Origin: Tricholoma matsutake
Taxonomy: Eukaryota; Basidiomycota; Agaricomycetes; Agaricales; Tricholomataceae
Assembly (NCBI GenBank): GCA_026075535.2
Contig: AP026544.2
Coordinates: 4,960,001 to 5,024,000 of the forward strand
Direction: 5' to 3'
DNA: 64,000 bases
Shown here: in pieces, positions 2,899-24,595 of the stretch
How positions within the stretch are numbered: the stretch's first letter is position 1
How the letters are laid out: each line of letters opens with the position of its first letter
The notes under the pieces: model-generated
What the model saw: the letters and a program-made list of their open reading frames with translations, nothing else
What the model was told of the DNA's origin: nothing
The model's database searches: none
Position numbers and translations under genes: made by a program

Positions 2899-2980
2899 TG
2901 CAACAAACAGGACTCAAACCAGTGATATTATAAGCATGTGAGAAGGTTTCAACGCACAATACCATTACACCAAGCAGCCG
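2899..2980 (-). other. tRNA-like module (A box/B box), element 0 left end
   Basis: Read on the minus strand, a TTGGTGTAATGG A-box-like motif (2973-2962) is followed by a GGTTTGAGTCC B-box-like motif (2920-2910). This is the spacing of an internal Pol III promoter with an enlarged middle. It faces the left terminus of the element. I see no full cloverleaf or usable anticodon arm, so this is a tRNA-derived or tRNA-mimicking module, not a tRNA gene. Confidence 0.45.
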
Positions 2981-3153
2981 TTGTTAAGGTACTGCAACCA
3001 ATGCTACATGTCATGTCAGCCAGGCCGATTAGATAAGGTCTATTATTAGGTATGTTCTATTATTGAAACAATAGTAATACTGAGGTGACATGGCATTAAT
3101 TTTTCCCACTGTCCCACTACATCCCCCACCACATCCTCAATCTGCCTAAAGAG

Positions 3154-3753: not shown

Positions 3754-3763
3754 TGATAGGTCC

Positions 3764-5472: not shown

Positions 5473-6065
5473 CACGAACGAAGTCCAAAGAAACTTTGAA
5501 ATTCTTTGAAAAACCTCGAGCCTCAAAAAACATCTTCAGACACAGTATTTCCTATTCAAACAATCTTCGGATGCATGCTGGACACATGGGACACTATCTC
5601 GAGTATATCAAACACATTTCGACCGCATGTGCATGCATACAATCTGCTCGAAGCAGTTTCCGATGTTTTATTCAATTTATAACAAGGACAGTCTGCTTTT
5701 AGCTATTCTTTTTTATTATTTCTTCATCCATGTGTTATATTCACCCTTTCTAGTCTCACTTTATTGTTTGATATACTTCTATTGTCTTTTGCCTCGAGTT
5801 TTCCACATGTTTGCCTCATGTTCTCTAGCCTTTTTAGTAAACTTTGCACTCCCCCCCGTATTCCTATCAGAGTCCTAGGAGTCCTACTAGTCCGCCACTA
5901 GTCCTAGGAGTCCGATTGGAATGTATCTTGATGACCATGTACTTTTATTTCCAAGAAATTCCTAGTAAATTCCGAGTAAAGTCCTATGCAATTCCAACAG
6001 GTAGTAGTCGGACTACCACACCATTTCGGAAGACTTAACTTGATGAAAGTGCTTACAAAATAAAT

Positions 6066-6148
6066 GGGCAGAGCAGGAATTGAACTCTAGACCTTGGGAT
6101 ATAAGTGACATGACTACCAAACAAGTGCTCAACCAGTTGAGCCACAGG
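6066..6148 (-). other. tRNA-like module, element 1 left end
   Basis: On the minus strand TGGCTCAACTGG (6144-6133), with a pairing D-arm GCTC/GAGC, is followed 45 bases later by the B-box-like GAGTTCAATTCC (6088-6077). The module faces the left TIR and closely resembles the one at the right end of element 3. The anticodon region is long and irregular, so a functional tRNA is unlikely. Confidence 0.55.
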
Positions 6149-6235
6149 AGCATTAATAAATATGTAATCCATTTAAAGCACTTAGGATTAGTTCACTTAT
6201 TTTTAACCTCTCTCACAAGAGCTCGAAAAAAAATT

Positions 6236-6395
6236 GTTGAGCCCTCGCATCTTCGCGAGGGAGTAGATAACTAATATAGATTTAAAAAAAACCCCCCACA
6301 CAAATGCGAGGGGGAGAATTAATTATACTATTTAATTATACTATTTTAAATTCTACAAAAAAAACCCACCCCCCCACAAAACGGGGGGGAGGGGG
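6236..6395. repeat. CCCTCGC hairpin cluster, element 1
   Basis: Small inverted repeats lie next to the tRNA-like module: CCCTCGCATCTTCGCGAGGG at 6242-6261, then ACCCCCCAC.../GCGAGGGGGAG and CCCCCCAC.../GGGGGGAGG pairs, each separated by AT-rich runs. Equivalent clusters occur at 20850-20930 (element 2) and 24060-24312 (element 3). They could act as hairpin terminators, RNA structures or protein sites; nothing here decides. Confidence 0.5.
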
Positions 6396-7133
6396 TGGTG
6401 GTGCATCGTGTTGGCTGTCTCGTCAGCCCTGTCCCGTCGTTTCCCCTCCCTCTTGTCTCCGTTGTGTCTCACCTCCCTCACCTTGCCTCCCCCATGGCTT
6501 GCCTCCCCTCCCTTGTCTCCCCTCCCTCGTCATTCCACCCACCGTCCACCCCACGAGCAGTTGCTCGCGAGGCTGGTGGTGGGTGGTGTGTCATATGTTG
6601 GTGGCAGTGTTTGTCCATTGTCTCCCCTTCTGGTCGTTGTTTCCCTTTCCCCTTGTCATTTCGTCACCCTTGTCATTCATCCCCCTTGTCGTCTGCACCC
6701 ATGAACCACCCTATGGGCAGCTCCTCGTAGGCGTGTTGTTTGGTGCTGTCGTCGTCCCTCCACGCCATTCCCATGTTCTCGCACCCCATATACACCCTGC
6801 GAGCAGTCGCTCACGGCGGTGATGGGGGGTGCTGGATGTCATTGGTGTTGTGGGGGGTCCATGCACTCACGATCCCCCCTACGAGCAGCAGCTCGTAGGC
6901 ATGGGGTGGGTGCGTTGTCGGTTCGTCAGTGATGTGGCTTGAGGGGAGGGGTCGAGTGGTGCTTACCAGGCAGGTATTCCCCTTCTGGGGTCTCCTGGTG
7001 TTGCTCCCCATGCTCCTGACCATGATTGATACCCTCACATCCTGTTTTGACGGGGAGGAGGGGGGTTGCCAGGGGCATCGTTGGGTGTGGGTTTGGCTTG
7101 CGTCAGTCTGTTGTTACTCATGTAGATTAGAAC

Positions 7134-7250
7134 CTAGAAACAAAAAAAATGAATTAGTTAGTTTACAAAAGTGAAAAACAAATGAAAAAAAAAACTTACT
7201 ATGGCCCAAACGATGATTGCATTGTTTGGGTGTTGTTCGGCATCGAAACC
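7134..7250 (-). other. Hairpin-intron cassette, element 1
   Basis: Read on the minus strand: a GGCCCAAACGATG-type hairpin, then a GTAAGT donor (7199-7194), a T-rich tract, a CTAACTAA branch-like motif and a TTTCTAG acceptor at 7134. That makes a 66 nt intron-like unit, matching the cassettes of elements 2-4 in order and size. The left arm of the hairpin is partly degraded (ACACCCAAACAATGC). Confidence 0.6.
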
Positions 7251-7477
7251 AGTTGTTTCCGGTCTTGGGGGCTTGTCTAGAGATGGGGGTGAAGTGGGAG
7301 TGGTGGGAGTTGCTGGGTTGAGGTGGTTGAGGTGGGGGGGATGGAGGTGGCGTGCTTGTCGTCGTTGGTGGTGGTGGTGGGAGTTGATGAGCTGGCAGGT
7401 GTGATGACGCAGCTATGTGCTTTGTCATCACACCCGCGGGAATGGTATGTAGTGTAGTATGATCACTTACCTGTAAT

Positions 7478-7558
7478 GATTGTTTAGCCTAATGGTATTG
7501 TTGTCAGTTTATGCTTACATAATCTTCTGTAGTCAAGTGTTCAATTCTTGTCTGTGCG
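7478..7558 (+). other. tRNA-like module, element 1 right end
   Basis: TAGCCTAATGG (7485-7495) and AGTGTTCAATTC (7536-7547) have the spacing of A and B boxes and point toward the right TIR. Together with the module at 6066-6148 this gives a pair of outward-facing modules. Confidence 0.5.
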
Positions 7559-8464
7559 TTTAATTTTTCATACTATATTACTAAGCAAGGCTGCTTTCAT
7601 TTCTATTGGGATCCTATGTTGTCTGATGTCTTAGCATAACTTCGGACTAGTCCTATGTGATTTCTATGATTGGAAATTCCTAGGAAATTCCGATAGTCCA
7701 ATCGGACTCTGATCGGACTACATCGGACTGGACTAGGACTAAATGTGCCATTTCATGTCAATTTGGCTGGTGAAAATGACATCAGAATATGGTTGGATTC
7801 CAATTGGAGTCCAATTGGAATCATTGGAATCATCGGATTCCTATAGGAATACGGGGGGGAGTGTAAAGACCTCCCTTTTTAGGTACTTTCTTTATTTTAT
7901 ATAAAAAGATGTACTAGATACAAAGAAAAAGAAGAAAGTCATTGTCTTCCTCCTAGATCACAGTGATTTGAGAGTTCAATTTAGTCTTGTTCAGTCTGAA
8001 GTTTGGTGTTTTATGCTAAACTTCCTTGAAATTCCTTGAAATTCCTCAAGATTCCTTGCACTATGCTATTTTCACTCTCGTTTCCCTCAATTCACCTTTC
8101 CTTTGCTTCTACTACTCATCTAGTCCCCCAATCTTGCATCCGAACATATTTGTGCACTCGAAATTCCTCAAAACTTCTTTGAAAAAACCTCGAAAAATAT
8201 TGCAACACCTCGAAAAATATCACAACATCTCAAAAATCATCACAATGTCTCGAAAATCATTGCAACTCCTCGAAAATCCTCAAAAGTCCTCAAAACACAT
8301 TCTTTTAGCTTCAAACTGCTTCAACAAGCAGTTGTTTTAGGACTATTTGATGGTTGGTCTGACAGGTGACATCTAGAGGGCCTCGCATCCTTCCTCTGAC
8401 TTGTGTTATACCATCCAAAGCCATTTAGTAGGTTTTGTTTGGGTTTCTGGGTTGAGTATCATCA

Positions 8465-10625
8465 ATGAGGAGCAGTAAGTCTCATCTGTGTTTGAGAATG
8501 TGGACACCATCAAGCCCTTTTTGCAGATGGGTATATACTCATTCATTCGCAATCAAAGGAAATTTCACTGCTTCACACCAATGTCAAAAGTGTCCCAAAG
8601 ATGATGTTCCATTAACAAATGGAGAGTCATTTATGACCGAGAGCTCTGCATATAAGAAGCACTTAAAGGTTGCAATGGAATCCAAGTGACTGCCTTGTAC
8701 ATGTAACGAGTTCAAGGCTGAATGCAGTCAGAATATTGATGTTGGTGCATGTGATGCCACTGGGATATGCTCTGTAGTTTGCCTTTGGAATGGGTTTTTC
8801 ATTCCAGAGTCTACAGTTGACTTCCAGAAAGGAGAACAGTAAGCCCTTTTACATGATTCCTGCCAACATCAGCCTGATATAGTTCTTTCAAATCAGACAA
8901 AAGAACATTGACTATGCCGTCTGTAAGGCATTGAATGGAAAGAGTATGGCTGGAATTAAGCAAAGTCTATTGGTTTATGACATATTCTGTCAGTGGTGGA
9001 ACAACTTCTTCTTATGGGTCAAACATTTGCCCTACCTGTCCATTCCTGAAGGCATGAAATTGATAGGGATAGGAGACATTCATGTGAAGGGGCATATCAT
9101 TGACTGCTTTGCTAGGTGGAACTTGTTATTTATTATAGGGTCTGGTGTTATTGATGGAGAGATTCCAGAAACACTGTGGTCAGTGCTGAACAAGACCTCC
9201 CAGAGTGCTAAAGGGTCTATGCTGGCCCATCGGAGCAAGATTCTCAATGATCACATGAATCATTCCAACTGGAAAAAACTGATCAGGATGGGTATGGAAC
9301 TTCTGACTTTTCATACTGTTACAATCTTGTTGACTGCAGATTCTACTAGTTTCTACATTGATCCGAAAGCTAAATAGGGCCAAAGAGCTACTGAAGTCAT
9401 CCAAGGAGGCATATCAGAAACTAACCACTTCATCATCAAAGGAAGACATCGAAACATGGATGAAGGGGGAGCAGAAGGCCCAAAAGACTCAAGAATGGGA
9501 TGCCCAGAGTATGGATTATTTTGCATTGAAAATGAATACAGGTGAGCAGCATTAAAGAATATCTAACAATGGCACTCTTGTAATAATATCACCATAGCAC
9601 CTGGAAATGCAGAAGTACAGCTACAGCTAACCAATGAAGAAATGTTTTTGGGGAAGGCCGGGATGATCGATTTTCTAACTCAAGGCATCTGAATACAAAA
9701 GGCCCAGTATGGAGATGTTGTTTACAATGAGATAGGCTGATAGCTAACAGACAATCCTTCTCGGTTACAGATTAGCCTTGCAAAGTTACTTAAGGCAGGT
9801 TGGTGCTAAACCCACTGTCAAGGAGCAAATTGAGATTATGAAATGGTGGAGCAAACTACTTGGCAGGATTACTGACCACCAAAGATGCACCAATCGACTT
9901 TTGAGCACCAATTGTCTGCAAGAGGCTGATTATGGATACGAACCTTCCAAGTAGGAAATAATGGCAAAATTGAACTGGTGGAGTCACACTCCCCATTGGA
10001 TCCATTTGTCAATCAGAATAAATTGCCCTGGCCAGAGACATATCATATCACAATGCCCTCAACAATGGAACAACGTACAGAAAATAGCTCTTGGATGCTG
10101 TGCATTTGGAGGTAAGACTAAGGGCAGGCCAGTGCAATGATAGTTTGCAAGGCATGCAGCTAGCTTTAGGCAAGAAAGCTTTTCTATTCTGGGCTCAAAT
10201 CAGACCCAAGGGTCCAAAGACAGGGAAAACAAAGTCATGGGATGGCATTCATGCTGCAGATCAGTCACCTTGGGTGCATGCACAAATGTACCGCTCAGCG
10301 CATGAGGCAATCGTAGCATTGCATGGCTCAGCAGAGCTTCTCTCCCATTACCAGGTCCTCAAGAGTGAACATCTGAAGACTAGCACCACCTTGTTGGATC
10401 TGGCCATATCTGGTTGGAAGCATGCCAAACTACTCTCTTCAGATCACATGAAGGAATGTAAGTAATGGGTTTTTCATCACATGGATTTGTCATTGTGGTA
10501 CTGATTGGGCTATAAACTCAAGTTCATAGAGTGAATTGGCTGTGGGCAAAGGCTGCCTTTGGTCATGCATCAGAGGAGAATATCTTGGTAAAACATGAAA
10601 TGAAGTGGACAGCCTCACACTGAGG
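8465..10625 (+). pseudogene. KDZ-type transposase, central and C-terminal part
   Basis: Continuation of the gene broken at 3753. Across several frames it shows DGNF-like AIKGNFTAS (8544-8570), a CPKDDVPL segment, a CTCNEF segment (8698-8715), then the conserved core at 8931-9300: LLVYDIFCQWWNNF, a DIHVKGH...C block and GVIDGEIPETLWSVLN, the invariant GE..E..W region of KDZ enzymes. The end (10100-10620) includes EVRLRAGQCNDSLQGMQLALG and WAKAAFGHASEENILVKHEM, typical of the C-terminus. A stop at 8688, another near 9689 and multiple frame shifts make it a pseudogene. A possible intron (GTGAGC...CATAG) lies at 9542-9599. Confidence 0.8.
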
Positions 10626-10639
10626 TGTATGGCAAACCT

Positions 10640-11194: not shown

Positions 11195-11389
11195 TGAGGT
11201 CTTTACACTCCCCCCCCCAATCCGAGTGGACTCTGCTTGGACACTCAGACAGTCCTAGGACTTTGCTCAGACTTTGCTTGGACTTTTTTGGCTGAAAGTC
11301 CTGCCAAACTAGATGTCCAGTCCAAGCTGAGTCCTTGGACTGTCCTAGGACTGTCCAAGTTGCTTATATAATTGACTGAAAAATCAGTG

Positions 11390-11470
11390 GCTACCACAGG
11401 GATTGAACCCTCATAGTCACATGATAAAGTACAATTAAGGCAGTGATATAACTGTTAGACTAAAGTATCA
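11390..11470 (-). other. tRNA-like module, element 2 left end
   Basis: On the minus strand CTTTAGTCTAACAG (11465-11452) is followed by a well-formed B box GGGTTCAATCCC (11410-11399). The T-arm-like GGG/CCC pairing is clear; the rest of the cloverleaf is poor. It faces the left TIR. Confidence 0.5.
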
Positions 11471-11505
11471 TTACAGGTGAATAGTTTTATCTCTCTATGT
11501 ACCGC

Positions 11506-11742
11506 TGTAGCCGTGGCAGTAGTGCCCATAGCAGAGTCCAGTAGCAGAGCATGCCAGAGTCCGGCATTCCCCTTAGTGGTCATGTGACCTCGTAGATAGA
11601 CACGCGCATGTGGTAGACAGGGGATCATCTTTATCTTTGCTTGTCTGCATCCGTTCCGACTCGCGTCTAGTAGTAGACGCGAGCCCTGTCTGAACTGTCT
11701 CGTCTAGTAGTAGATGAGACCCTAAGAGACCGCACGACTCCA
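11506..11742 (+). repeat. 5' LTR of gypsy E
   Basis: It starts TGTAGCCGTGG and ends GCACGACTCCA. It differs from the 3' LTR at a limited number of sites, many of them CpG transitions (CGCG versus CACG). A palindromic CGCGTCTAGTAGTAGACGCG block is present in both LTRs. Confidence 0.85.
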
Positions 11743-11743
11743 T

Positions 11744-11760
11744 CTGGTGACAACTGGGAA
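11744..11760 (+). other. Primer-binding site, gypsy E
   Basis: CTGGTGACAACTGGG begins one base after the 5' LTR, the expected position for tRNA priming. I have not assigned the primer tRNA. Confidence 0.5.
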
Positions 11761-12046
11761 TTTGAACTCGACACACACAGCCGACCACTTTCATTTCCAC
11801 AAGTCGCTCCTTCTCGTCTCATTTATCTCAGGCACCATCCTTTTCAGCTCAACGTTGCCCTCTGATTGCTCGCCCACATTTGTTATTGTCTACATCCGTG
11901 ACACCCAATCGCGTCCCTGCAACATGCACCCATCTATGCACCTCGTGTTGTGCATCCTGCTCCACCTCGTGGTGAGCCTCACATCCACAACACTGGCTAA
12001 ACCTGTACGATGCGACCCTAGAGGCAGATTTCTGCCTGCCACTTCA

Positions 12047-13456
12047 ATGACTGCGCTGAGTGAAGCACCATCCCTAACTACCTTGTACATATTCCCATCG
12101 TTACCCAACCTCGCAACCAGCCCAACTCCCACCTTCGAGTATATACTACCACCTGTACCCCCGTCTACACCTCAGCTCTCTACAACCCCACCCAATGATG
12201 ACGACTTCATGCCCAAGAATGTCAAACCATTCTGGGGCAATGATGAACATCCAGAGGAGAGCCCTCAGGACTTCCTAAAAGTGATGCAACGCTGGGGCCT
12301 CAACAAAACCAACGCCACGGACACACAGAAGCTGGAGAACTTCAGGCTCAACCTGAAATTGAACACCGCAGCAGAACAATGGTTCAACAACCTACCTACC
12401 ACCGACATCAACACCTGGGACCACCTCATCAGTGCATTCAAGAGGAAGTGGCTGAGCAAAGCGCCCACCATGAAGACCGTCGAGGAGAAGCAGGCGGCGC
12501 TAGAGCAAACCATGATTAGCGAAGAAGAGGTGGGGAAATGAGTGGTGACGAACGGAGTAGAAGAACTCGTGCACGTCGTATGGGCTGACAAGATAGAGCG
12601 TCTTGCAGCCACAATCCCAGATGCCAATGGTTTGTTGGTCAACTCCATTCACAGATCAATGCCAAAGGTCCTACAGAAGGTAACGGGATCAGGGCACACC
12701 ACCTGGGCATCATTCTGCAATGCTGTATGCACAGCTACAGTCACCCAGATCACCGAGGCAAAAGAGGAAGAGAAGGAAGCAAGGGAGTTACGAGAGCAGG
12801 TAAGGAAGTTACAGGAACTACGCGAGACATCTGCACGAGACATCACAAACACACTCCAACAGCTCACCCTCAACGCACCACCCCCCGTTCCCCAATTCCC
12901 AATGCTCCGAACACAACCACCCAGCACCCCAAACTATTCCCCCGCACCAACGCTCAATGCGAACAACCAGGCCCCACGCACCACCTACCAAACACCGAAC
13001 CAACCAACATACCAGCAGAACAGAACCCCTGCTGAGCGCATGAACGATGTCATAAGGCTCGCACTCCCCATCCACCCAAACACCCCAGCCGGCTGGCCTT
13101 TGTACAAGGCCCAGATCACGAAGTGGCACACTGAATACGCCGGACAGCAAGTGAGCGAGACACGTCCATACCCACTCTCACCTGGAACCACGCCTGTCAC
13201 GTCAGGAGAGTGCTGGAGGTGTGGCTTGCCAGGACACGTGGGCCCCAGCTGCAACAGCTCCACGCCGGTCCCAAGATCTGAAAGTCGCTGGAGATCCATC
13301 GCTGCATCTATCAAACGCAGCTGCCCACCAAATGTAACAAGAAACATCAACCTCATCAACGAGATCAGTCCATGGACATCAAGGGAAGAGTATGACCAGC
13401 AAGTGATTGCCAACTACTTAGCAAGTCAGGGAAAAGGACCGGGGTCATCAGCATAG
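12047..13456 (+). pseudogene. gag: Gag of gypsy E
   Basis: Structural polyprotein that packages element RNA. One frame is open from an upstream region to 13456, broken only by a TGA at 12539-12541. I take the ATG at 12047 as the likely start. A retrotransposon-gag core occupies about 12200-12530 (NVKPFWGNDEHPEESPQDFL, then LNTAAEQWFNNL). A coiled, Glu/Arg-rich stretch follows at 12760-12850, then a Pro/Thr/Asn-rich linker and a CCHC knuckle, CWRCGLPGHVGPSC, at 13213-13254. Upstream in the same frame, a hydrophobic signal-like segment (11936-12000) precedes the chosen start. Inactive because of the stop. Confidence 0.8.
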
Positions 13457-13506
13457 AACAAGAGGTCCCGCTGACAACCCAAGGAAACAAGCATGATAGC
13501 GGAGGA

Positions 13507-16500
13507 ATGGTCCTTGGGTGTGAGAAGGCATCATCCAAGGACAATGAAATGCCATTGAGCACAAGGTGTACTGTAGAGAAGGAAGACAAACTCTTACTTA
13601 CAGATGCGAATAGTAAACCAGACACCACCATGTACACCGCCCAAGCAGAATCTCATATCGTTGATCTGTATTGCATGGAGAGCAACGACAATGAAACAAG
13701 AACCACACCATTCCAATACATGGTCAAATTACATGGACCACAAGGAGAAATCATGAGGCTAAATAGCACATTCGACGATGGAGCAATGGTGAACGCCGTT
13801 GATCTCTGGACATTCCGAACTGTCAAGCACCGCCTCGAAACACTGGGGAAGTCAAATCGTATCATGCATATGGCAGATGGCAGGCTGGTACCATCTGCTG
13901 GAACATGGACAGGAAGTGTCACAGCAGCAGACATCTCGCATCGAGGTACCTTTGAAGTCTTCGATAGCAATGGGGCTTGGTCAGTGCTGTTTGGGAAACC
14001 CCTCCTGAAGAAGTTCAAAGCGGTGCACAATTATGACCTGGACATCATAAGGATCCCCAAGGATGGCAACTGGGTCATGCTACAGAACCAGCACAAGTCG
14101 GAAGGAAGAACCCAGTCACTGTTTCCAGCGAACAGTAATTCCGGTAATAACCAGGGCATAACTCCAAGGGGGATCTCTGCGCATCCCCCCTGAGAACATG
14201 AGAGTCATCAAGAAACCAGAACTGAGCATCCAGAGGCACAGGACAGGCACATGCACCAGAATCTCGCAACACCACAAACTCAACACCCACTCATGCAGGA
14301 TGGAAACAAGAGACGTACAAAAGTGGAACGTGCCCAGTGGCAAGTAGCCAATGGCTTGCATGAAAGGAGGTCTCGGGCAGAATGCACATCAGCAAAGTGC
14401 AAGAGATTAGGGAAATCACTACAGAAAGATAAACAACTAACTGCCCAGCTTTCATCCTCCACCAAAATACCTCTTACTAATAATATACCCAACAGCCCAG
14501 ACCCCAAACCAAGCGAAGGCAACATATGGAACATCGGCTCAGAAGAACATGACATCAATACCGGCACAGAGCAAAAAATACTTTCTGGGGACTGAGACAA
14601 AGCAGTGTTCACCCGGTCATCAGATCCATTTAAAGTTGAGTGTGTGAACACGGTGCTCTCAGAACTAACTATAGGTGACGATTTAACTGAAAAACAACAT
14701 GTAAGCATTGATAACCTACTCCACGAGTTCGCTGACTGCTTTGCACTATCCATGAGCGAGGTAACGGTAGTAGCAGGAGCCACACAAACTACACATACCC
14801 AACAGCACAACATTTAAAAAGAAGGTAAATCAACGTCCTCTCAGTGGCCCTCAAAAGGAATACTTCAATGGTGTGCTCAACAAAATGCTAGAGGCAGGTA
14901 TAATTGCCCCAATCAGCCACAGTGCGGTCAAGTGTTGTGGTGCAACTACCTTGGCAAAGAAAGCACATGAAGGCATAGGTCTAAACTTAGAAGAACTGCA
15001 ACACCGGGTCAATGATGAATGCATCACCGCCGGAATACCTTCAGCATTCAAAAACCTCCCACCGAGAAATTCTGAATGGCCAGACACGGTACCAGAAGAA
15101 ACACAAACTAAGTGGCGAGTGTGCCAGGACTTTGCCAAACTGAACAAAGTAACACAGGTACCACCTATGCCCCAAGGAGACATACGGGCCAAGCAACAGC
15201 GCCTGAGTGGCACCAATGGGTAAATACATTCGACTTTGCAGCAGGATTCTATGCTTGCGAAATCAGCCCAGAGGACCAACCATATGTATGCTTCTATGTG
15301 GAAGGAAGGGGGTACTTCTGTTACAAGCGCATGCCCTTTGGATTAACAGGTGCGCCCTCTACCTTTGCAGAAATGACAGCTCAAGCACTTGGCGACCTCA
15401 TAGGTATACTTTTTGAACTGTTCGTAGACAATGGTGGAATGGCCAGAGATGATTTTGAAGAAACATTGGCCAACATTTGAACATTGCTAACCAGGGTAAG
15501 AGAAAAAGGGCTCTCCCTATCAGCAGCCAAATCAAAATTCTTCATGACTGAAGCCACCTTTGCGGGAGCAAGAGTGGGACCAATGGGTATAAAACCAGAC
15601 TTGACAAAACTAACAGCCATCGTGGACTGGAAATGGCCCATGGATCTACAGAATCTAGCAGCATTTACAGGACTTACAGGTTATTTTAGATCGCTAATCA
15701 AAGGCTATGCAGCCTTGGCCCAACCCCTCACCGACCTAGCCAGAGGCCTCAACCTTCCAAAGGGAAAGGGTAAAGCAGCATATCGACGCACCATGAAAGG
15801 GCACTTGCTGGCAGGCCTATGGAAGGAAGAACATGAAAAAGCCTTCCTGGGACTGAAAATTGCCTTAACCAATGAACCAGTTTTGAAAGGACCAAAATTT
15901 GATGGAACACCCTTCATTGTTACCATGGATGGTTGCAAATATGGTTTTGCAGGCATGCTGTCACAAAGACATACTACGGTCTCGCCAAATGGAAAGGACA
16001 CCACACATATACATCCAGTCGCATTTGGCAGTAAACGAACATCTGAGACAGAAGAGAAGTACAAACCATACTTACTAGAATTTGCTGCACTGAAGTTCTC
16101 TTTAGACAAATTCTCCGACCTTATATGGGGCTACCCAGTGGAACTAGAAACAGACTGTCAGGCACTCAGAGACCACCTGCTAAATGACAAACTCAACTCC
16201 ACCCATGCTCGTTGGAGGGACGGCATGTTAGCCCACCAAATCATGGACATACAACACCGACCTGGCCACCTAAACCCCATAGCAGATGGTATCAGCAGGA
16301 AATATGTGAACCTACCCAAGGAAGAAAATGATGGTCACACATGGACAGTAAGTGAAGATTGGGAAGCATGAACGGGCATTCAGAACGACATATTCCAAAT
16401 TGAGTCACCACTCATTTATGATGCTCTCAAAACCCGGTTCGCTAATGAAAAAGTATTCCTAAATGTTATAGAGGCACTGGCTGAACTAGATCATGGGAGG

Positions 16501-17844
16501 AGTATTAAGGAACGGAAGAAAGCTAGGCACCAGGCAGAAGGGTACGTAATCCAAGATGGTAAGCTTTGGAGGATTGGTGACACCAAATCTACACAGGTGA
16601 AACCACGAGTAGAATGTGTACCACAATCGGAGGCAGTCACACTAGCATGGGAGGTACACCGGAGCCAAGGACATTTCCACCAAGATAATGTGAAGATCGC
16701 ACTAATGGACAAGATAGCCAGCCCACATCTAGACCAATCCATCACCAAGGCAATCATGGATTGTGGTAAGTGCAAAGGACATGGCCCAAAACACTTACAT
16801 TCACTACTAGAGCCCATAACGCGGCAGCACCCATTTGAACTGCTTGTGGGAGACACACTGTCAATGCCGAAAGGAAAAGGGGGTTTCATGAAAATTGCAT
16901 TATATGCAGATGTCTACTTGCAACATGTTTGGGCAGATAAACTCAAGACGGCTGCAACAGCTGCAACCACATGCAGAACATTCAACAACATTTGTACCAC
17001 ATTCACAGCACCTGAAGCCCTCATGGTTGATGGAGGACCGGAGTTTGACAACAATGCTGTTCGTGAAGCATGCGCCACACATAAGGTTGAGTTGCAGATT
17101 GTCCCAGGATATTCCCTCTGGATCAATGGCCTCATAGAAGGGATGAACGCAAAATTGTTGGGGAGATTGAAGAGGCTATGCTCACCTGATCTAGGGGAAG
17201 ACAAATGCAATGCAAAGGACCTACCAGCTTCATGGCCTGACCACCTTGAGGAAGCCATTGAATCCCTTAATAATTGCATACTGCCAAATCTCAAATTCTC
17301 ACCAAATGAACTTCTTCTAGGCATTGTGATCAACACAAAGCACACTCCAGTGGACCGAGCAGAACAGGAAGTGTCAACTGGTGAAGTGGGGGTCCAGATG
17401 GCATACATGGAACAGCAGCGATTAGATGGGTACGAGCACATACTATCTCATGCCCATAAATGGAAGCTGGCGTTCGACAGGAGACTATTAGCCCAAGCTC
17501 CAAGAGAGGTCATATTCAGAGCAGGACAACTCGTACAGGTATACAGGAGTGACCTGGACTTCACATTTAAGGTAGAAAGGAAGATGGAGCCTAGGTGGTC
17601 AGCACCACGCCGAGTAACAAGTAGGAACCACAATTCTTACAAGTTGGAGACTCTTGAAGGATTACCTATTAGCAACAGGTTCTCCTCCAGGTGACTACGA
17701 AGGTTCATTCCACGTAGCAGCACAGCGCTACACAAAGCACAAGCAGAGATTGAAGAGCTGCAGAGTAAGCAGGAAGCCAAAGAAGACATTGTGCAAGGGG
17801 TAGAAGGAAGACAGGTGATCGACGATGATAGCAATACAGATTGA
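13507..17844 (+). pseudogene. pol: Pol of gypsy E (protease, RT, RNase H, integrase)
   Basis: Domains in order: an aspartic-protease-like region (STFDDGAMVNAVD near 13765-13803, where DDG replaces the usual D[ST]G, and VLFGKPLLKKF); reverse transcriptase (AGIIAPISHSAVKC near 14895, FDFAAGFYACEI, MPFGLTGAPSTFAEM, then FVDNGGMA at 15421-15444); RNase H (TMDGCKYGFAGML to NPIADGISR); integrase with zinc-binding HRSQGHFHQD...CGKCKGH and catalytic D-D-E residues in VGDTLS, MVDGGPEFDN and LIEGMN. The RT site has Asn instead of the second Asp. Stops at 14191, 14593, 15478, 16369 and 17692 are all TGA; frame shifts occur near 14800 and 15200. Not functional. Confidence 0.85.
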
Positions 17845-17996
17845 GAGGATATAGAGCATGGAGTGGAGCAGGAACCATCAACCCTGAGCTGAGTTCAGTA
17901 ATGGCCCTGGCTGCTGACTAACACTGATCACTTTAAGCCTATATATTAGAGGCCCTAGATCGCTTCAACCACCTCGCCCAACCCACACTCAGTCTA

Positions 17997-18320
17997 ATGA
18001 ACGCAAGAGCCTTGAATAACGGATGGTTTTCCAGATATACCCTATTCTTCATTGTCATGGTGTTCCTCAGCCCTTTCATCCTAACATCAAAACAACTACA
18101 ACTGGACCCTGAATACGACGATATCAAACTGGGGGAGTTACCCAGTTTTGTCAACCCAGAGCTAGTTCAAGAACGACTTGCTATCCCAATACCACCTGAC
18201 ATCGACTTCCCACTGGCTGCTCATTTACGGCCTTCACAAGATGCACACCCAGTAACCCTGACCAATCCAAGAGCTGACTACAATGATGGACAAGGTCCCA
18301 GAAGGTACCTGTGGCCCTAA
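17997..18320 (+). CDS. Small putative membrane protein ORF of gypsy E
   Basis: An intact 107-codon ORF from ATG to TAA between pol and the 3' LTR. Residues about 10-30 (WFSRYTLFFIVMVFLSPFIL) form a single strongly hydrophobic segment after a short polar N-terminus, as in a signal anchor. The rest is acidic then proline-rich and ends RRYLWP. It carries no stop codon although gag and pol around it do. I know no family for it. An env-like or accessory role is a guess; chance survival in a short ORF is possible. Confidence 0.45.
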   Translation: MNARALNNGWFSRYTLFFIVMVFLSPFILTSKQLQLDPEYDDIKLGELPSFVNPELVQERLAIPIPPDIDFPLAAHLRPSQDAHPVTLTNPRADYNDGQGPRRYLWP

Positions 18321-18490
18321 ACACCATTTCTACGTTGGGCCTTTAGGGGGAGCGATTGTCATGGACATGCCTCCTGGGGTACATGGGCCAAGGTGAGGGT
18401 AAGGCATTGGTGCCTTGTACATACATAATTCTCTCTTCCTTCCCTGAGTGAGATCGCAATGAGGGTGTTGCTATTGTGTAGGGGGGTACA

Positions 18491-18727
18491 TGTAGCCGTG
18501 GCAGTAGTGCCCATAGCAGAGTCCAGTAGCAGAGCGTGCCAGAGTCCAGCATTCCCCTTAGTGGTCATGTGACCTCGTAGATAGACACACGCATGTGGTA
18601 GACAGGGGATCATCTTTATCTTTGCTTGTCCGCATCCGTTCTGACTCACGTCTAGTAGTAGACGTGAGCCCTGTCCAAACCATCTCGTCTAGTAGTAGAC
18701 GAGACCCTAAGAGACCGCACGACTCCA
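18491..18727 (+). repeat. 3' LTR of gypsy E
   Basis: A 237 bp copy of the 5' LTR. A purine-rich TAGGGGGG tract just upstream (about 18479-18487) fits a polypurine tract. A second, similar tract, TTTAGGGGGAGCGAT, lies about 134 bp further upstream. Confidence 0.8.
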
Positions 18728-18805
18728 CCGCCCTGGCTGTGATGACAAATCAACACAGCCACATCACCGACAATGATGCCAGCTCATCATTGATCATCAC
18801 CAACC

Positions 18806-19469
18806 CACTACTGGGGCTGATGTGTCTTTCCCACAGAAACACAGCCTTAGAAACTTGTTTTAAGACTTCTGATGTGTATATCCTTTGGATATTCTTAATA
18901 TGTATGTAAAAGAAATGTCAGGGAAATATTTTAGATGTATCCAAGCTGTATCTGCAAGGAACATAAAAGGTGTATTCTACAATGTTTCTTTCAGATCCCT
19001 TCTGGAAAGATTTTTTATGTTCCCTTTGTGTAAGTTAAAGAAATACTTTTTATGTAATTATGGCTGTATCTGCAGAAAACATTTAACATGTAATTTTATT
19101 ATGTGTTTCCTAGGGATACATGTGTAACCATGGTAACTCCTTTGTTCTTTGCATGTATCCATAGAAAACACATAATAAAATATATGTCAAGTGTTTTCTG
19201 CAGATACAGCCATAATTACATAAAAAGTGTTTCCTTAACTTACACAAAGGGAACATGAAAAATGTTTCCAGAAGGGATCTGAAAGAAACATTGTAGAATA
19301 CACCTTTTATGTTCCTTGCAGATACAGCTTGGATACATCTAAAATATTTCCCTGACATTTCTTTTACATACATATTAAGAATATCCAAAGGATATACACA
19401 CATCAGAAGTCTTAAAACAAGTTTCTAAGGCTGTGTTTCTGTGGGAAACACAGGTCAGCCCCAGTAGTG
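18806..19469. mobile_element. CACTA-like fold-back MITE
   Basis: This 664 bp sequence is an almost complete palindrome: it starts CACTACTGGGGCTGA and ends with its inverse, and the two ~300 bp arms pair with few mismatches around a centre near 19130. The flanks are ACC at 18803-18805 and 19470-19472, a 3 bp target duplication. CACTA termini and a 3 bp duplication are the marks of the CACTA (EnSpm) superfamily. The mirrored open frames of about 80-97 codons are a by-product of the palindrome and not genes. Confidence 0.8.
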
Positions 19470-19579
19470 ACCCCCACCACCATCAATCACCACTCGATGA
19501 CGCCGCCTCCCTCCCGTGTCCTGCTGCTGCCACTGCCCCCTGAACACCCCACAGCCATGGGTCCCATGCCAGCACACAA

Positions 19580-20104
19580 TGAAAGGGGCCCAAACAATTC
19601 TATCATCATTTGGGCCCCAGGTGAGTTTTTTCTTTTTTCTTTTCTCATGTTTTCTTTAAGCTAACACATATTTCCATTAATTACAGGTTATATCTATACT
19701 GTAGCAGCACAATGACCCCCAAACCACCAGATGAGGAACAACAACGAGACCACAACCCAGCACTCACCCCTGCCAGTGCGAGCAACTGCTTGCATGGGGG
19801 AGAGTGGCTGCTAATGGCAATGATGATGGCAGGAAATGATGAACCACCTGCCCCAGCCCTACAAGCTGCTGCTCGTAGGGTGGACAACGGGTGGAACAAC
19901 AACAATTAGGGGAGATGCCAATGACACCCAGCACCCCCCATAACTGCCACAGGCAACTGCTCGTGGGGTGGATGGGGGGTGTGAGAGTGCAGGTACTGAC
20001 AGGGAGACAAAAAAGGCCCAAGAGATGTCAATGTCTCTTGGGTCCTAGGTAAGTTTTTTTTTCTTTTCTCATTTCATTTTTTCAATGCTAACTAACTTTT
20101 TTAG
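19580..20104 (+). other. Two hairpin-intron cassettes, element 2
   Basis: Cassette one: a GGGGCCCAAACAA.../TTTGGGCCCC hairpin (19586-19618), then GTGAGT at 19621, a GCTAACAC branch-like motif and TTACAG ending at 19686 (66 nt). Cassette two: a GGCCCAAGAGATG.../CTCTTGGGTCC hairpin (20013-20046), then GTAAGT at 20049, GCTAACTAAC and TTTTTTAG ending at 20104 (56 nt). The arrangement matches elements 1, 3 and 4, but between the two cassettes lie GAGCAACTGCTC palindromes. Confidence 0.6.
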
Positions 20105-20935
20105 GTACAAACTACTACTGGCAATGATGACAACGGGGGGACACCACCACCACTGCTGCGAGCCCCTGCTTGCAGGGTGGAAGGTGAGGGTGAAGAGATG
20201 CAGGGGAAGGGAGATGACTACGAGAGTGGGGACATGTAAGGGGACTAGAGGGGTGCCCTGTATGTTTTTCCTATTTTTTATGTTTGTCCGAAATATTTTT
20301 CCCCACCTCATTTCCTTCTATTCTTCATTTTCTATGATTTTTCCGGATTTTATTACTAATTTTCCCTTGCTATCATGTTTGTGTATGTTGACACTTTTAT
20401 ATTTAGAGGCGGAGTACCCCTTCCGACACATACCCCTTGGTATGATGTCATTTGGCGGCCTTGATCCACCTATCTCCGCCTTTTTCTATTTTTAGGTTAT
20501 ATTTGATTTTTGTCGTCTTCACATATACTGGGCATCAGCAAGGGGATCCTTAGAGTTTTCTCTTCGGATTTCCCTTTGCTAGGTGCGCCCCCAATCCCTG
20601 TATTATGTAGCATAATTTTAACTTCAGATTTCCCTTTGCTAGAGGCTTAGGTTGCCCTTATAGGACACCCACAATGACACCTGCCCCACACCTATGAGCA
20701 TCTTGCTCATGGGGTGGTTCGGGGGGGAGAAGAATGGGGACAGGAGAGTGAGACGGCCAGGGGACAACCTGGGGAGAGATTGAACGCTGCCATGAGCAAC
20801 TGCTTGTGGTGGGTGTTTTTAATTTATTTTTATAATTGATAGTTACAGCCCCCTCCCCTCGAGCTTGCAAGGGGAGGGCCTTGTATTCTACTTGTTGTAC
20901 CCCTCGCACAGATACAAGGGCAATTTAATAATCTA
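19776..20935. repeat. GAGCAACTGCTC palindrome array and CCCTCGC hairpins, element 2
   Basis: Short palindromes of the form [AC][AT]GAGCAACTGCT[CT][AG]TGGGGTGGA recur near 19785, 19865, 19947, 20160, 20693 and 20793, usually followed by GGGTGGA. A cluster of CCCCTC.../GAGGGG and CCCTCGC.../AAGGGC hairpins with T-rich tails lies at about 20850-20930, next to the tRNA-like module. The same two repeat types occur in elements 1, 3 and (palindromes only) 4. Confidence 0.55.
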
Positions 20936-21001
20936 TTCATGATATATATAAAATTAGATTTCAGTAATAAATAGATATAATGTATGTAAATTTAAATGAC
21001 T

Positions 21002-21088
21002 ATTTGGCTTAAGTAGTAGAGTGTGCACATTTGGTCATCATGTGATGCTAGTCCAGAAGTCTGTTGGTTCAATTCTTGCTGTGCACAC
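21002..21088 (+). other. tRNA-like module, element 2 right end
   Basis: TTGGCTTAAGTAG (21004-21016) and TGGTTCAATTCTTG (21065-21078) match A-box and B-box form and point toward the right TIR. GTGCACA...TGTGCAC could form part of a stem. Confidence 0.5.
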
Positions 21089-21374
21089 ATCATTTTGTGA
21101 GACTTATAGGAATTTCTCTAAGTCTGGAACTCAGACTTTACTTGGACAGTACTTTAAAGGTGTAAATAAATGCACAATTGATGTTGTCCAAGCAAAGTCC
21201 AAGCAAAGTCTGAGTGCAGTCCTCAGACTTTACTCAGACAACTTGGACAGTCCGAGTGTCTGAGTGTCCGAGCAGAGTCCGAGTGAAGTCTGAGGACAGT
21301 CCGAGTGTCTGAGTGTGTCTGAGCAGAGTCCGCTCGGATTGGGGGGGGGGGGAGTGTAAAGTACTGCTTCCTCC

Positions 21375-21768
21375 CTCAGCATCACAGGTCCCATCATCAT
21401 CGACAGTATCACATGACACATCATCAAGCTCTTCTAAACGAGGACACATGACTGGTGCAATTGCTTTAACTCATATTGGAAACAACTTTGCAGATCTCAA
21501 TGCTGCATTTCAATATGGTATCGACAAGGAGCAGGAGTGACATCAAGCGCAAATGGCAGAATGACAGACATGTGGGCAGGAGTAGGCTGTGTCGCAGGCC
21601 CAGGAGATGGAAAAATACCTCAATGACAATGAGCTCACTGCGCTTATTGAAGTTTTTGAGGAGCATAATGCTGCAAAAACTTATCTTGTGATTAAGACAT
21701 CTGAGCTTCGCAAAGCCTGTATAAAGCGTAAGTTGAATGTGTTAGGTATGACACCATCTTTTGCCTAG
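21375..21768 (+). pseudogene. ORF downstream of KDZ transposase, 3' part
   Basis: It continues in frame the Ser-rich linker interrupted at 11194 (SASQVPSSSTVSHDTSSSS), then a GAIALTHIGNNFADLNAAF helix and, after frame damage, a C-terminal block LNDNELTALIEVFEEHNAAK...LRKACIKRKLN ending at TAG 21766. The final block looks like the short helical tail of regulatory or DNA-binding-type proteins seen near basidiomycete transposons, but I cannot name the family. Stops at about 21538, 21571 and 21592 disable it. Confidence 0.4.
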
Positions 21769-22321
21769 AATATTCCATTGTATGTAAACTTGAATGTATG
21801 AACAATATGACATTTGTACTCTCAAAAAGTAACACTACCGTCAAACTCTCAAACACAGTACAGCTTTTTTTTTTTTGTGTTATTTTCACAACCTCTCAGG
21901 GCTCACCCTATAATGGTCTTTACATGTTAGAGTATCTACTAAAGGCCCCCATTGCCTTGACCTCCCCTCAACTCATGCACCTCAGATGGCATGCCCTAGG
22001 CAATTGCTCCCCCTGAGGCCCATTTCATCAAAATGTTTAGAGTTACAGGGCCTCCTTTCATCTCTTTGTCCCTTCAATCTGTTTGGTTTGCCATTTGTGG
22101 GTGTTAAGTGCCTGGCCAAGTAGTGGCAGGAACAGGGCAGACGGTTTAGACTTGGACATTGACTGTTGCTGTTTCTTCTTTGTGGTGAGTGCATCGGGTG
22201 ACTTTCTGTAGTCCTCTGTGATGCAGGCTGTGAAGTTTTTGGGGGTTTTTTGGGAGTTTGAGTTTGTAGTTTTGGTGTCAAGGTTGTAGATTCTGTGGGT
22301 TTCATGCGAGACAGTTGTTTC

Positions 22322-22466
22322 TTAAGTAACTGAGTATTCACCTTTGGTTGGGTTTAGACATCCTGTTCTGTTTATGAAACTAATAAGAGCTTTTATGCCT
22401 TTTTCTGAGCCCATGAGCACTGTTAGGTCCCTTGAGTCCCTTCTCATCTGTCAGTCTAGCTCATGT
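22322..22466 (-). pseudogene. LINE ORF2 C-terminal tail, beyond element 3
   Basis: Read on the minus strand from 22466, the frame interrupted at 24596 resumes and gives MRRDSRDLTVLMGSEKGIKA followed by LISFINRTGCL before a TAA at 22324-22322. The ...LINRTGRF-like ending after a zinc-finger-like region is the usual C-terminus of Tad/I-type fungal LINEs. One in-frame TGA sits just past the element 3 insertion site. Confidence 0.7.
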
Positions 22467-22741
22467 CGAGCTCTTTACATTGCCCCACGTATTCCTCCAG
22501 GATTCCTCTAGGATTCCTGGTAGTCCCTGCTTCAGCCATTGTCCACCAAATGGTTTATTCCTGGCAGTTTCTCTTCCAGTAGGATTCCTGGTGGATTCCT
22601 GGTATAATCCTGGTAAATTGGGCTCTTTCTGGTACCATTCCAGGAATTCCCCAGGACTTGGACTATGAGGAATCCAGGAGGATGGACCAGGAATCCAGTA
22701 GGATTGAACCAGGAGTCCTTAATACTAAGTAATAAAATAAA

Positions 22742-22821
22742 TGACACAAGGCAGAATTGAACCCTAGGGATTTAGACAACATCATTTCAGCACAGCCAAT
22801 ATAACCACTACACCACATAGA
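22742..22821 (-). other. tRNA-like module, element 3 left end
   Basis: On the minus strand TGGTGTAGTGG (22815-22805), a very good A box, is followed by AGGGTTCAATTCTG (22765-22752), a good B box, 40 bases later. It faces the left TIR. Confidence 0.55.
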
Positions 22822-23060
22822 CTTACAAAGTGTGTCCACTAACTGCTCTAGGTACCATTGGGGCAGCTGTGCATGACAAAGCACACAGCCGCATCATCAA
22901 CACTGCCAGCTCATCAACCATCACCACCACTCTCGACAACGCCGCCGCCTCCCTCCTCTCCATTCTACCACCACCACCACTGCGTGGACACCCACTGCCA
23001 CCATTCCCACACCCAGTCCACCATCACCACCACCTTCAAACAAGCCAACTGGACGGAACA

Positions 23061-23625
23061 TGGGCCCAAATGATGCAACCTGCTGCGTCGTTTGGGCCCT
23101 GCATAAGTTTTTTTTTCATTTGCTTTTTGTTTTTATAAACTAACTAATCTGTTTCTTTAGTTTTCTAGGTTATAATCTACTGGTAACGATGCCACCACCC
23201 GCAAACGAGCCAACACAGGCCCAAATGATGCGGTCTGCATCGTTTGGGCCACATGTAAGTTTTTTTCATTTGCTTTTTGTTTTTATAAACTAATTAACTC
23301 GTTTCTTTAGTTTTATAGGTTATGATCTACTGGTAATGATGCCACCACCCGCAAATGAGCCAACACAGGCCCAAATGATGCAATCTGCATCGTTTGGGCC
23401 CTATGTAAGTTTTTTTGTTTGCTTTTTGTTTTTATAAACTAATTAACTTGTTTCTTTAGTTTTATAGGTTATAATCTATTGGTAATGATGCCACCACCCA
23501 CAAACGAGCCAACTGCATGGAACGCAGGCCCAAACAATGCAGATTGCGTCGCTTGGGCCCTACGTAAGTTTTTTGTTTGCTTTTTGTTTTTATAAACTAA
23601 CTAACTTGTTTCTTTTGTTTTATAG
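23061..23625 (+). repeat. Tandem array of four hairpin-intron cassettes, element 3
   Basis: Period about 150 bp. Each unit has an exon-like segment of 86-96 nt (23169-23254, 23319-23404, 23468-23563; the first is partial) that ends in a hairpin, GGCCCAAATGATGC with GCATCGTTTGGGCC, directly followed by GTAAGTTTTTT. A T-rich tract then carries AAACTAA[CT]TAA and ends in TTTTCTAG or TTTTATAG. The intron-like parts measure 64, 63 and 62 nt; unit one has ATAAGT in place of GTAAGT. The intron lengths and the donor, branch and acceptor motifs fit basidiomycete introns. The exon lengths are not multiples of three throughout, so a coding role is doubtful. Confidence 0.75.
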
Positions 23626-23679
23626 GTTCTACTCTACTGGTAACGATGGCCGGACACGAGACAACCCAACACACCCACC

Positions 23680-24312
23680 CCACGCCTGCGAGCCTCTGCT
23701 CATAGGGTGGATTGTGAGTGTGCAGTCGACGACAACAATGATGCCACCACCTACCAGCACCAGAACCCCCAGAACGTGAAGCACAGCTGCCAACCACGAC
23801 GGACGACGATGATGGGGCCAACGACACACCACCTGCCTCCAGCCCCATGAGCCACTGCTTGTGGGGTGGATTGTGGGTGGAATGGCGATGACGACCACCA
23901 CCACAGCAGCACCCCAATCTGCCACCGTGAGCAACTGCTCATGGGGCAGAAACAGGGAACCATTGGGATGGGGACGACGGGGAGACGGGGACAGGGACAG
24001 GGATGGGGATGAGGACGGGGAGCAGGAACCATACACCCACACCATGATGAGACACCACCAGGCTGCCCCCTCCCCCGCATTTTGCATGGGGAGGGTTTTT
24101 TTTCATTTTTTTTCTTTCATATTAATGCCCTCCCCCTCGCCCGCATTTTACAACAGCGAGGGGATTTTCTTTATTTATTAATAATTGTCGCCCTCCGCAA
24201 GGGGATTTAGTTTTATCTGTAAATATTTTTAGGGCTCTCCCTTGCACGAGGTGCATGGGAGGGCTTTTTTTATGTAATTGTATTGTATCCCTCGTGTCTA
24301 ATGCAAGGGATG
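23680..24312. repeat. Palindrome and hairpin zone, element 3
   Basis: GAGCCTCTGCTCATAGGGTGGA (near 23689), GAGCCACTGCTTGTGGGGTGGA-like (near 23849) and GAGCAACTGCTCATGGGG (near 23931) are the same palindromes as in elements 1, 2 and 4. From 24060 on, three or four hairpins with G/C stems and T-rich tails follow: CCCTCCCCC...GGGGAGGG, CCCTCGCC...GCGAGGGG, CCCTCCGCAAGGGG and GCTCTCCCTTGCAC...GTGCATGGGAGGGC. They end just before the tRNA-like module. Confidence 0.55.
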
Positions 24313-24420
24313 TAGTTGATTAAAATTATTTGATCTTAATAGTGACTTTGAGAGAGATTATATGCTTGAGTTTGAGTTTGAGTCATAAATAAACTTTATA
24401 TGGATAACAAATAATTCTCC

Positions 24421-24507
24421 TGTGGCTCAGCTGGTTGAGCACACTTGTCTGGTTTGTCATGTGATTCCTCATCATGAGGTCTTGAGTTCAATTCCTGCTT
24501 TGCACAA
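24421..24507 (+). other. tRNA-like module, element 3 right end
   Basis: The best tRNA-like module in the window. TGGCTCAGCTGG (24423-24434) has D-arm pairing GCTC/GAGC, the B box GAGTTCAATTCC lies at 24484-24495, and short TGTG/CACA acceptor-like pairing is possible. The anticodon arm region is too long for a normal tRNA. It points to the right TIR. Confidence 0.55.
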
Positions 24508-24595
24508 ATCTGTTTTGTGGGCACATTGTGAAATTTCTGAAGTTGAGGCACTTGTACTGGATTCCTCCAGGACTATGTGGTGCAGTGTAAAGTTC

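What the first reader, a model, noticed from the sequence alone, without database searches (positions are those of the whole stretch)
5838..24595. A TIR element family with outward-facing tRNA-like modules at both ends
Elements 1 (5838-7873), 2 (11195-21366) and 3 (22467-24595) each carry two A-box/B-box modules, one just inside each TIR: minus strand at the left (6066-6148, 11390-11470, 22742-22821) and plus strand at the right (7478-7558, 21002-21088, 24421-24507). All six would transcribe outward through the subterminal repeats and TIR. Element 4 (38941-39025) and the KDZ element (2899-2980) keep the left module. Known: A and B boxes with tRNA spacing drive RNA polymerase III. Inferred: outward Pol III transcripts could cover the ends and the flanking target, or recruit TFIIIC as a boundary. 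I know of no DNA transposon family with this symmetry.
Basis: partly seen in the sequence, partly recalled or inferred. Interest (0 to 1): 0.92.

Follow-up and report, generated by a model that had tools for sequence, protein, structure and literature searches.

The report
Transposons ending in two tRNA-like units
A large family of jumping DNA in the matsutake mushroom carries, just inside each end, a different short tRNA-like start-and-stop signal pointing outward; I found no earlier description of such a design in the papers searched, and it may serve to keep the element's ends open and active.

Summary
All six perfect A/B-box pairs in the window are claimed modules. The elements are real: exact 8-9 bp target duplications in 16 of 20 TIR-chosen copies. 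A perfect outward pair lies within 450 bp of 27 of their 40 ends, 0 of 40 on the opposite strand, 4 of 1600 shuffles. The ends differ: one module type (P) sits at the CAGTAC-like end, another (Q) at the GAGGTC-like end, in all four families seen with both ends. Main-family modules: 276 P and 218 Q genome-wide, reversed controls 0; neighbouring P and Q diverge in 58 of 61 cases.

Each module is thus a complete short Pol III unit predicted to stop inside the element, not to run through the TIR. No tRNA fold was detected; promoter and terminator persist while most neighbouring DNA diverged. One KDZ-transposase element carries Q next to its gene. Function is inferred: TFIIIC/Pol III occupancy keeping ends open.

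The parts
2612..3790 (+). left (Q) end and start of a KDZ-transposase element (WKDZ): tip GAGGTTTTTACACTGCCCC, Q module, then transposase gene on + strand; continues in pieces beyond nested insertions
   Evidence: TIR match 2618-2630; CxC2 (KDZ-associated cysteine cluster, Pfam PF18803, E 1.2e-13) at 3332-3601; KDZ domain at 8883-9377
2911..2972 (-). Q module of the KDZ element: A box TGGTGTAATGG (6/6), gap 42, B box GTTTGAGTC (6/7)
   Evidence: relative L069 has B box 7/7 but A box 5/6
2892..2895 (-). T4 run, predicted Pol III terminator of that module, 15 nt after B box
8883..9377 (+). piece of KDZ transposase (PF18758, E 4.5e-20)
5838..7873 (+). element 1 (W1): P end left, Q end right, duplication CCTTTTTA
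6077..6144 (-). P module of element 1: TGGCTCAACTG-48-GTTCAATTC
   Evidence: 13/13
6057..6060 (-). T4 terminator-like run, 16 nt after B box
7485..7547 (+). Q module of element 1: TAGCCTAATGG-43-GTTCAATTC
   Evidence: 13/13
7564..7568 (+). T5 terminator-like run, 16 nt after B box
11196..21366 (+). element 2 (W2, main family): Q end left, P end right; filled by a Ty3-type LTR element (open frames with gag, RNase H and integrase matches at 11726-17694)
11400..11462 (-). Q module of element 2: TAGTCTAACAG-43-GTTCAATCC
   Evidence: 13/13
11379..11383 (-). T5 terminator-like run, 16 nt after B box
21005..21075 (+). P module of element 2: TGGCTTAAGTA-51-GTTCAATTC (A box 5/6)
   Evidence: 12/13
21093..21096 (+). 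T4 terminator-like run, 17 nt after B box
22468..24597 (+). element 3 (W3): Q end left (GAGCTCTTTACATTG), P end right (CTGAACTTTACACTG)
22754..22815 (-). Q module of element 3: TGGTGTAGTGG-42-GTTCAATTC
   Evidence: 13/13
22734..22737 (-). T4 terminator-like run, 16 nt after B box
24423..24494 (+). P module of element 3: TGGCTCAGCTG-52-GTTCAATTC
   Evidence: 13/13
24513..24516 (+). T4 terminator-like run, 18 nt after B box
38694..39140 (+). P end of element 4 (W4); other end not found in the window
38951..39021 (-). P module of element 4: TGGTAGATCAG-51-GTTCAATTC (by alignment to L033 the A box is rather TAGATCAGTGG, 5/6)
   Evidence: (13/13)
38931..38934 (-). T4 terminator-like run, 16 nt after B box

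Best explanation
KDZ-type DNA transposons of T. matsutake, mostly short non-autonomous ones, carry two different tRNA-derived RNA polymerase III units, one per end, both directed outward. SHOWN by sequence: A box, B box and a tRNA-spaced T-run at each end, fixed pairing of module type with end type, maintenance across families whose neighbouring DNA has diverged, no detectable tRNA fold. INFERRED: the units bind TFIIIC/TFIIIB and are transcribed into RNAs of roughly 85-105 nt that stop inside the element; what selection keeps is the promoter occupancy, not the RNA. That occupancy keeps the ends (and, in the KDZ-coding element, the adjacent transposase promoter) nucleosome-poor and insulated from silencing spreading in from neighbouring repeats, as tRNA genes do at heterochromatin borders, so that transposase can reach both ends. 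The anatomical part (real, family-wide Pol III-type units) I hold at about 0.9; the stated role at about 0.4.
For: Perfect outward A/B pairs at 27 of 40 TIR-chosen ends, 0 of 40 inward, 4 of 1600 shuffles; with a T4 run at 12-22 nt 24 of 40 against 0 of 1600. T-run at 15-18 nt in 38 of 41 modules, 8.3% of random positions have one at 8-30 nt; no later T4 run before the tip in 38 of 38; real tRNA genes 12-22 nt in 20 of 20. Between families identity peaks at A box (P 0.72, Q 0.73), B box (0.96, 0.80) and tip (0.73, 0.84) and is 0.25-0.30 at B+50..90 and tip 40-100. 276 P and 218 Q perfect main-family modules, controls 0; 58 of 61 nearest P-Q pairs divergent. RNA folds no better than shuffles (z -0.9 to +1.4 in 11 units), spacer identity 0.42 (P) and 0.29 (Q), so the RNA product looks unconstrained. 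tRNA genes as Pol III-dependent heterochromatin barrier in fission yeast: PMC2040200 (title and start of abstract seen in the listing).
Against: No RNA, ChIP or chromatin data; one species. A and B boxes were used to find the modules, so their own conservation is partly circular (the T-run, the N positions of the boxes and the orientation are not). Some conservation extends beyond the boxes (B+22..50 identity 0.44/0.39; tip 16-40 0.45/0.49). Not every copy has both: of 20 elements 14 have both perfect, 4 one, 2 none. The KDZ-related element L069 has Q but no P module. In 20 KDZ-centred 10 kb loci strict pairs occur in only 5, and module-like ones in 3. T4 can be a weak terminator.
Confidence: 0.45

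Rival explanations
1. The modules are maintained for the short RNAs they make, which act in trans or in cis (for example on transposase, on silencing, or as decoys).
For: Complete units with terminators predict discrete RNAs; P modules resemble tRNA genes above shuffles beyond chance (6 of 6, partly circular since the boxes themselves match).
Against: No fold above shuffles in 11 units; spacer identity between families low; Rfam finds no family.
Confidence: 0.15
2. Fossils: tRNA or SINE-head sequences captured once in an ancestor and kept only because they lie in subterminal DNA that transposase binds; the A/B resemblance has no Pol III role.
For: Subterminal positions are where DNA transposases bind; each module type is homologous within its end type; Helenus (tRNA-like LTRs) shows tRNA-derived parts get captured by other elements (PMC10886601, passages).
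Against: Boxes and T-run persist at tRNA spacing while DNA nearer the tip has random identity between families; two unrelated modules keep the same three signals; spacing A-B varies 37-52 as Pol III tolerates.
Confidence: 0.2
3. One reading: outward Pol III transcripts cover the TIR and the flanking target.
For: Orientation is outward at every module; T4 may leak.
Against: T4-T6 run 15-18 nt after the B box in 38 of 41 modules, and real tRNA genes in this genome use runs of the same length and spacing.
Confidence: 0.07
4. Pol III units act in nuclear positioning, target choice or replication (tethering to tRNA-gene clusters, fork pausing) and so favour transposition.
For: Pol III factors guide other elements (Ty1/Ty3, recalled); Dada DNA transposons insert into tRNA and snRNA genes (PMC3706591, abstract).
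Against: No insertion preference for tRNA genes was tested here; the flanks read showed none by eye.
Confidence: 0.1

Closest known systems
KDZ (Kyakuja-Dileera-Zisupton) DNA transposons
   Same: TIRs, 8 bp target duplications (16 of 20 copies exact at 8-9 bp; Zisupton and Dileera 8 bp per PMC12730594, passages); one element with the shared tip encodes KDZ and CxC2 pieces.
   Different: Two outward Pol III-type units, one per end; PMC12730594 holds no occurrence of 'tRNA'.
TRIMp3 elements: Cassandra, Helenus, Ajax
   Same: Non-autonomous mobile elements carrying small-RNA-gene promoters kept as promoters, not as functional RNAs (PMC10886601, passages).
   Different: Those are LTR retrotransposons that need the RNA as template; here a cut-and-paste type DNA element has no evident need for it, and the two modules differ and diverge.
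tRNA-derived SINEs (SINE2)
   Same: A box, B box, degenerate tRNA head.
   Different: SINEs have one promoter, no TIRs and a LINE-like tail; these have TIRs and fixed-length duplications.
Dada DNA transposons
   Same: DNA transposons linked to tRNA genes (PMC3706591, abstract).
   Different: Dada targets tRNA/snRNA genes and makes 6-7 bp duplications; here the tRNA-like parts are inside the element.

Membership tests
KDZ superfamily | KDZ transposase | tested here: met
   For the window's WKDZ element only: PF18758 at 8883-9377, CxC2 at 3332-3601; pieces separated by nested insertions. The 2 kb elements have no transposase; their link rests on tip and duplication.
KDZ superfamily | 8 bp target site duplications and TIRs | tested here: met
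   16 of 20 copies exact at 8 (9 copies) or 9 bp (7 copies); L012, L013, L025, L028 not
KDZ superfamily | mobilised by KDZ transposase in trans | not testable with these tools
   needs an excision assay
tRNA gene | cloverleaf structure | tested here: not met
   ARAGORN 0; Rfam gathering 0 in window; no tRNA family match at E up to 10 in 10 loci; fold z -0.9 to +1.4
Pol III type 2 transcription unit | A box, B box 30-60 nt apart, T-run terminator | tested here: met
Pol III type 2 transcription unit | transcription by Pol III | not testable with these tools
   no RNA or ChIP data
SINE | no TIRs; 3' tail; variable-length duplications | tested here: not met
   TIR tips and fixed 8-9 bp duplications
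TRIMp3 (Helenus) | LTRs, PBS, PPT, 5 bp duplications in fungi | tested here: not met
   inverted, not direct, ends and 8-9 bp duplications; PBS/PPT not searched
Dada | insertion into tRNA/snRNA genes, 6-7 bp duplications | tested here: not met
   duplications 8-9 bp; flanks not tRNA genes by eye

The most novel reading that the evidence does not exclude
A class of cut-and-paste DNA transposons that depends on the host's Pol III machinery: each end must carry its own, different, outward Pol III unit, whose TFIIIC/Pol III occupancy (or short RNA) is required for the ends to be found, paired or shielded during transposition.
Probability: 0.3. Interest if true: 0.92.

Novelty: new variant of a known kind. 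Interest (0 to 1): 0.8.

Why it matters
Pol III promoters in mobile elements have been explained by the need for an RNA template (SINEs, Cassandra, Helenus). A DNA transposon has no such need, so hundreds of copies with two separately kept units point to a different use, such as controlling chromatin at the ends. It makes testable whether TFIIIC sites decide which DNA transposons stay active in a repeat-rich, heavily silenced fungal genome, and it would explain a stock of tRNA-like sequences and possibly mis-annotated 'small RNA' repeats.

Tried and rejected
Chance: rejected by shuffles and the opposite strand. Modules as genuine tRNA genes: rejected. Modules as part of every KDZ element: not borne out; 20 KDZ-centred loci gave 7 strict pairs in 5 loci, of which I count 4 (L033, L044 twice, L045) as modules and 3 (L041, L046 twice) as chance for want of a TIR. 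A search for TIR plus 8 bp duplication around those 20 KDZ domains found nothing in 19 and two palindromic, doubtful pairs in L043, so most KDZ ends were not located. A complete autonomous element with both modules was not found: L069 (right TIR at 5730, no matching duplication) lacks the P module and its seven frames examined show CxC5 and CxC6 but no KDZ domain; none of 150 listed KDZ matches lay correctly between the listed ends (capped lists). Source tRNA of the Q modules: not found (0 of 5 above shuffles against 20 mostly Ile tRNAs). Rfam hits (miRNA families on hairpins, below gathering) taken as chance. Random genomic control regions were not obtained.

Rows dropped or missing: one search uses 41 of 51 end rows; nine had no pair of at least 12/13 within 450 bp (P: L017, L020-L023; Q: L012, L013, L017, L027) and P_L028 was dropped by hand as a chance pair. 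The 20 copies were picked by eye from the first 100 of 870 TIR places; at least two further pairs under 5 kb in that list (2504083/2505867 and 4930780/4935646 on C1) were not fetched. By their flanks L012/L013, L020/L023 and L021/L022 look like duplicates of one insertion each.
Full report
What the window is. The genome held has 161,040,721 bases in 13 contigs. The contigs C11, C12 and C13 are 10,203,996, 9,912,917 and 9,869,253 bases long, and these figures and the total are those of the T. matsutake assembly TMA_r1.1 in PMC10211490 (passages seen). So the host is matsutake, a basidiomycete with 71.6% repeats.

The observation. A scan for A box TRGYNNANNNG and B box GWTCRANNC 25-65 apart found six pairs with all 13 specified bases in 64 kb; all six are claimed modules (1.3 expected from ten shuffles, at most 4). 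The two other claimed modules miss one base each. At one mismatch the scan of the whole window is no better than shuffles (44 against 38.7), so the argument rests on position, orientation and terminators.

The elements. The TIR start TTTACACTCCCCCCC occurs 870 times in the genome, its reversed control 13 times. I fetched 20 pairs of facing TIRs chosen without regard to modules. Sixteen have exact duplications of 8 (nine copies) or 9 bp (seven copies) directly outside CAGTAC/GAGGTC tips; four (L012, L013, L025, L028) do not. Of the 20 elements 14 have a perfect module of each type, 4 have one, 2 none; every perfect pair inside them faces outward. L027 holds two such elements.

Two different modules. 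Each element has a P end (CAGTAC TTTACACTCC and relatives) and a Q end (GAGGTC TTTACACTCC and relatives). P ends carry TGGCTTAAGTG-52-GTTCAATTC or, in other families, TGGCTCARCTG or TAG[AC]TCAGTGG types; Q ends carry TAGTCTAAC-43-GTTCAATCC, TAGCCTAATGG or TGGTGTARTGG types. The rule holds in the four families seen with both ends (main with element 2, element 1, element 3, the element near 7500-9280 of L044) and in those seen with one (element 4 and L033 with P; the KDZ element with Q). So the symmetry in the finding is one of orientation, not of sequence.

Controls. In the 40 TIR-chosen ends (450 bp each) a perfect outward pair is present in 27, none on the opposite strand, 4 of 1600 dinucleotide shuffles; adding a T4 run 12-22 nt after the B box gives 24 of 40 against 0 of 1600. 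Genome-wide, perfect main-family modules number 276 (P) and 218 (Q), reversed controls 0. Of 34 listed P modules on the searched part of C1, 21 have an exact TIR ahead within 800 nt and 1 behind (random placement mean 0.09, largest 2); of 25 Q modules 17 ahead, 0 behind; of 100 exact TIR ends 38 have a perfect main-family module reading to them, 1 one reading away. Of 100 listed P modules 61 have a listed Q within 6 kb: 58 divergent, 3 convergent, 0 tandem; the three convergent cases stand beside a second P with which the same Q is divergent. A pattern for the other-family Q module gives 286 places, control 0; some may be tRNA genes. The matching P pattern did not complete.

The terminator. 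After the B box a T4-T6 run begins at 15-18 nt in 38 of 41 modules, in every family; the three others (L019, L021, L022, Q ends) have lost it. Random positions on the same strand of the same ends have such a run at 8-30 nt in 8.3% of cases. No further T4 run lies between it and the tip in 38 of 38. In 20 tRNA genes fetched from this genome (all confirmed by ARAGORN; 15 of them Ile-TAT) the run is at 12-22 nt and 4-6 long. Hence each module has all three signals of a Pol III gene and should stop about 80-330 bp before the tip.

What is conserved. Between families, ungapped identity is 0.72/0.73 in the A box (P/Q), 0.96/0.80 in the B box, 0.73/0.84 in the first 16 bases of the tip; it is 0.25 at 50-90 nt beyond the B box and 0.25/0.30 at 40-100 from the tip. 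At box positions left free by the search it is 0.56/0.60 (A) and 0.83/0.60 (B). The spacer after the A box is 0.42/0.29. Intermediate values (0.39-0.49) occur just beyond the T-run and behind the tip. RNA folding of 11 units is no better than shuffles (z -0.9 to +1.4), five tRNAs give -0.2 to -3.0. Rfam reports no tRNA match at E up to 10 in ten loci holding modules. This favours kept promoters over a kept RNA.

The autonomous side. The KDZ-type element starting at 2612 has the same kind of tip and a Q module, followed on the other strand by pieces of a KDZ transposase gene: CxC2 at 3332-3601 and the KDZ domain at 8883-9377, separated by nested insertions that include element 1. Its left end has 40 listed relatives, 17 (itself included) matching 520 or more bases or to base 527, and 23 matching only bases 1-289, which end at the module. 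One relative, L069, keeps Q but has no P module at its other TIR and shows CxC5 and CxC6. Among 20 KDZ-centred loci only three show modules. So the feature belongs to one KDZ-like group, not to KDZ in general.

How it may work. I think the units are occupied by TFIIIC and Pol III and keep the ends, and in the coding element the neighbouring transposase promoter, open and insulated. tRNA genes act as a Pol III-dependent heterochromatin barrier in fission yeast (PMC2040200; title and start of abstract in the listing). This step is inference.

Comparison. Helenus, Ajax and Cassandra are LTR elements with small-RNA promoters (PMC10886601, passages; that text has no occurrence of 'DNA transposon' or 'MITE'). 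Dada DNA transposons insert into tRNA genes (PMC3706591, abstract). Papers on KDZ with TET genes (PMC12730594, passages) and on matsutake transposons (PMC6980582, term search without a hit) do not mention tRNA. The listings of searches showed no DNA transposon with Pol III units at its ends; the library holds open-access papers only, so this is not proof of novelty.

Noticed in passing
104-134 nt upstream of the P-module A box: window elements 1, 2, 3, L044 and most main-family copies: A hairpin CCCTYG..CRAGGG with changes on both arms lies there in 17 of 23 P modules examined and in 0 of 21 Q modules; use unknown.
   Followed up: partly
L051-L053, L055-L059, L061, L062, L065-L068: 14 of 20 fetched tRNA genes are near-identical intronless Ile-TAT genes of two types dispersed over chromosomes with shared upstream sequence: amplified tRNA genes or a SINE-like repeat.
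   Followed up: no
window 11498-18735 and 18790-19450: Element 2 is filled by a Ty3-type LTR element (gag, RNase H, integrase matches) and, by eye, a long inverted-repeat element beside it.
   Followed up: no
interiors of elements 1-3 and 4, e.g. 23062-23559: Repeated palindromes (GGCCCAAAYGATGC..GCATCGTTTGGGCC, GAGCARYTGCTC) and mini-exon-like blocks with GTAAGT/TAG borders.
   Followed up: no
flanks of L012/L013, L020/L023, L021/L022: Pairs of copies share the same insertion site in direct or inverted form: segmental duplications on C1.
   Followed up: no
genome paper PMC10211490, Table 2: Its repeat table lists 2,342 'small RNA' repeats over 1.94 Mb, about 830 bp each, far longer than small RNAs; these may include such elements (inference).
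   Followed up: no
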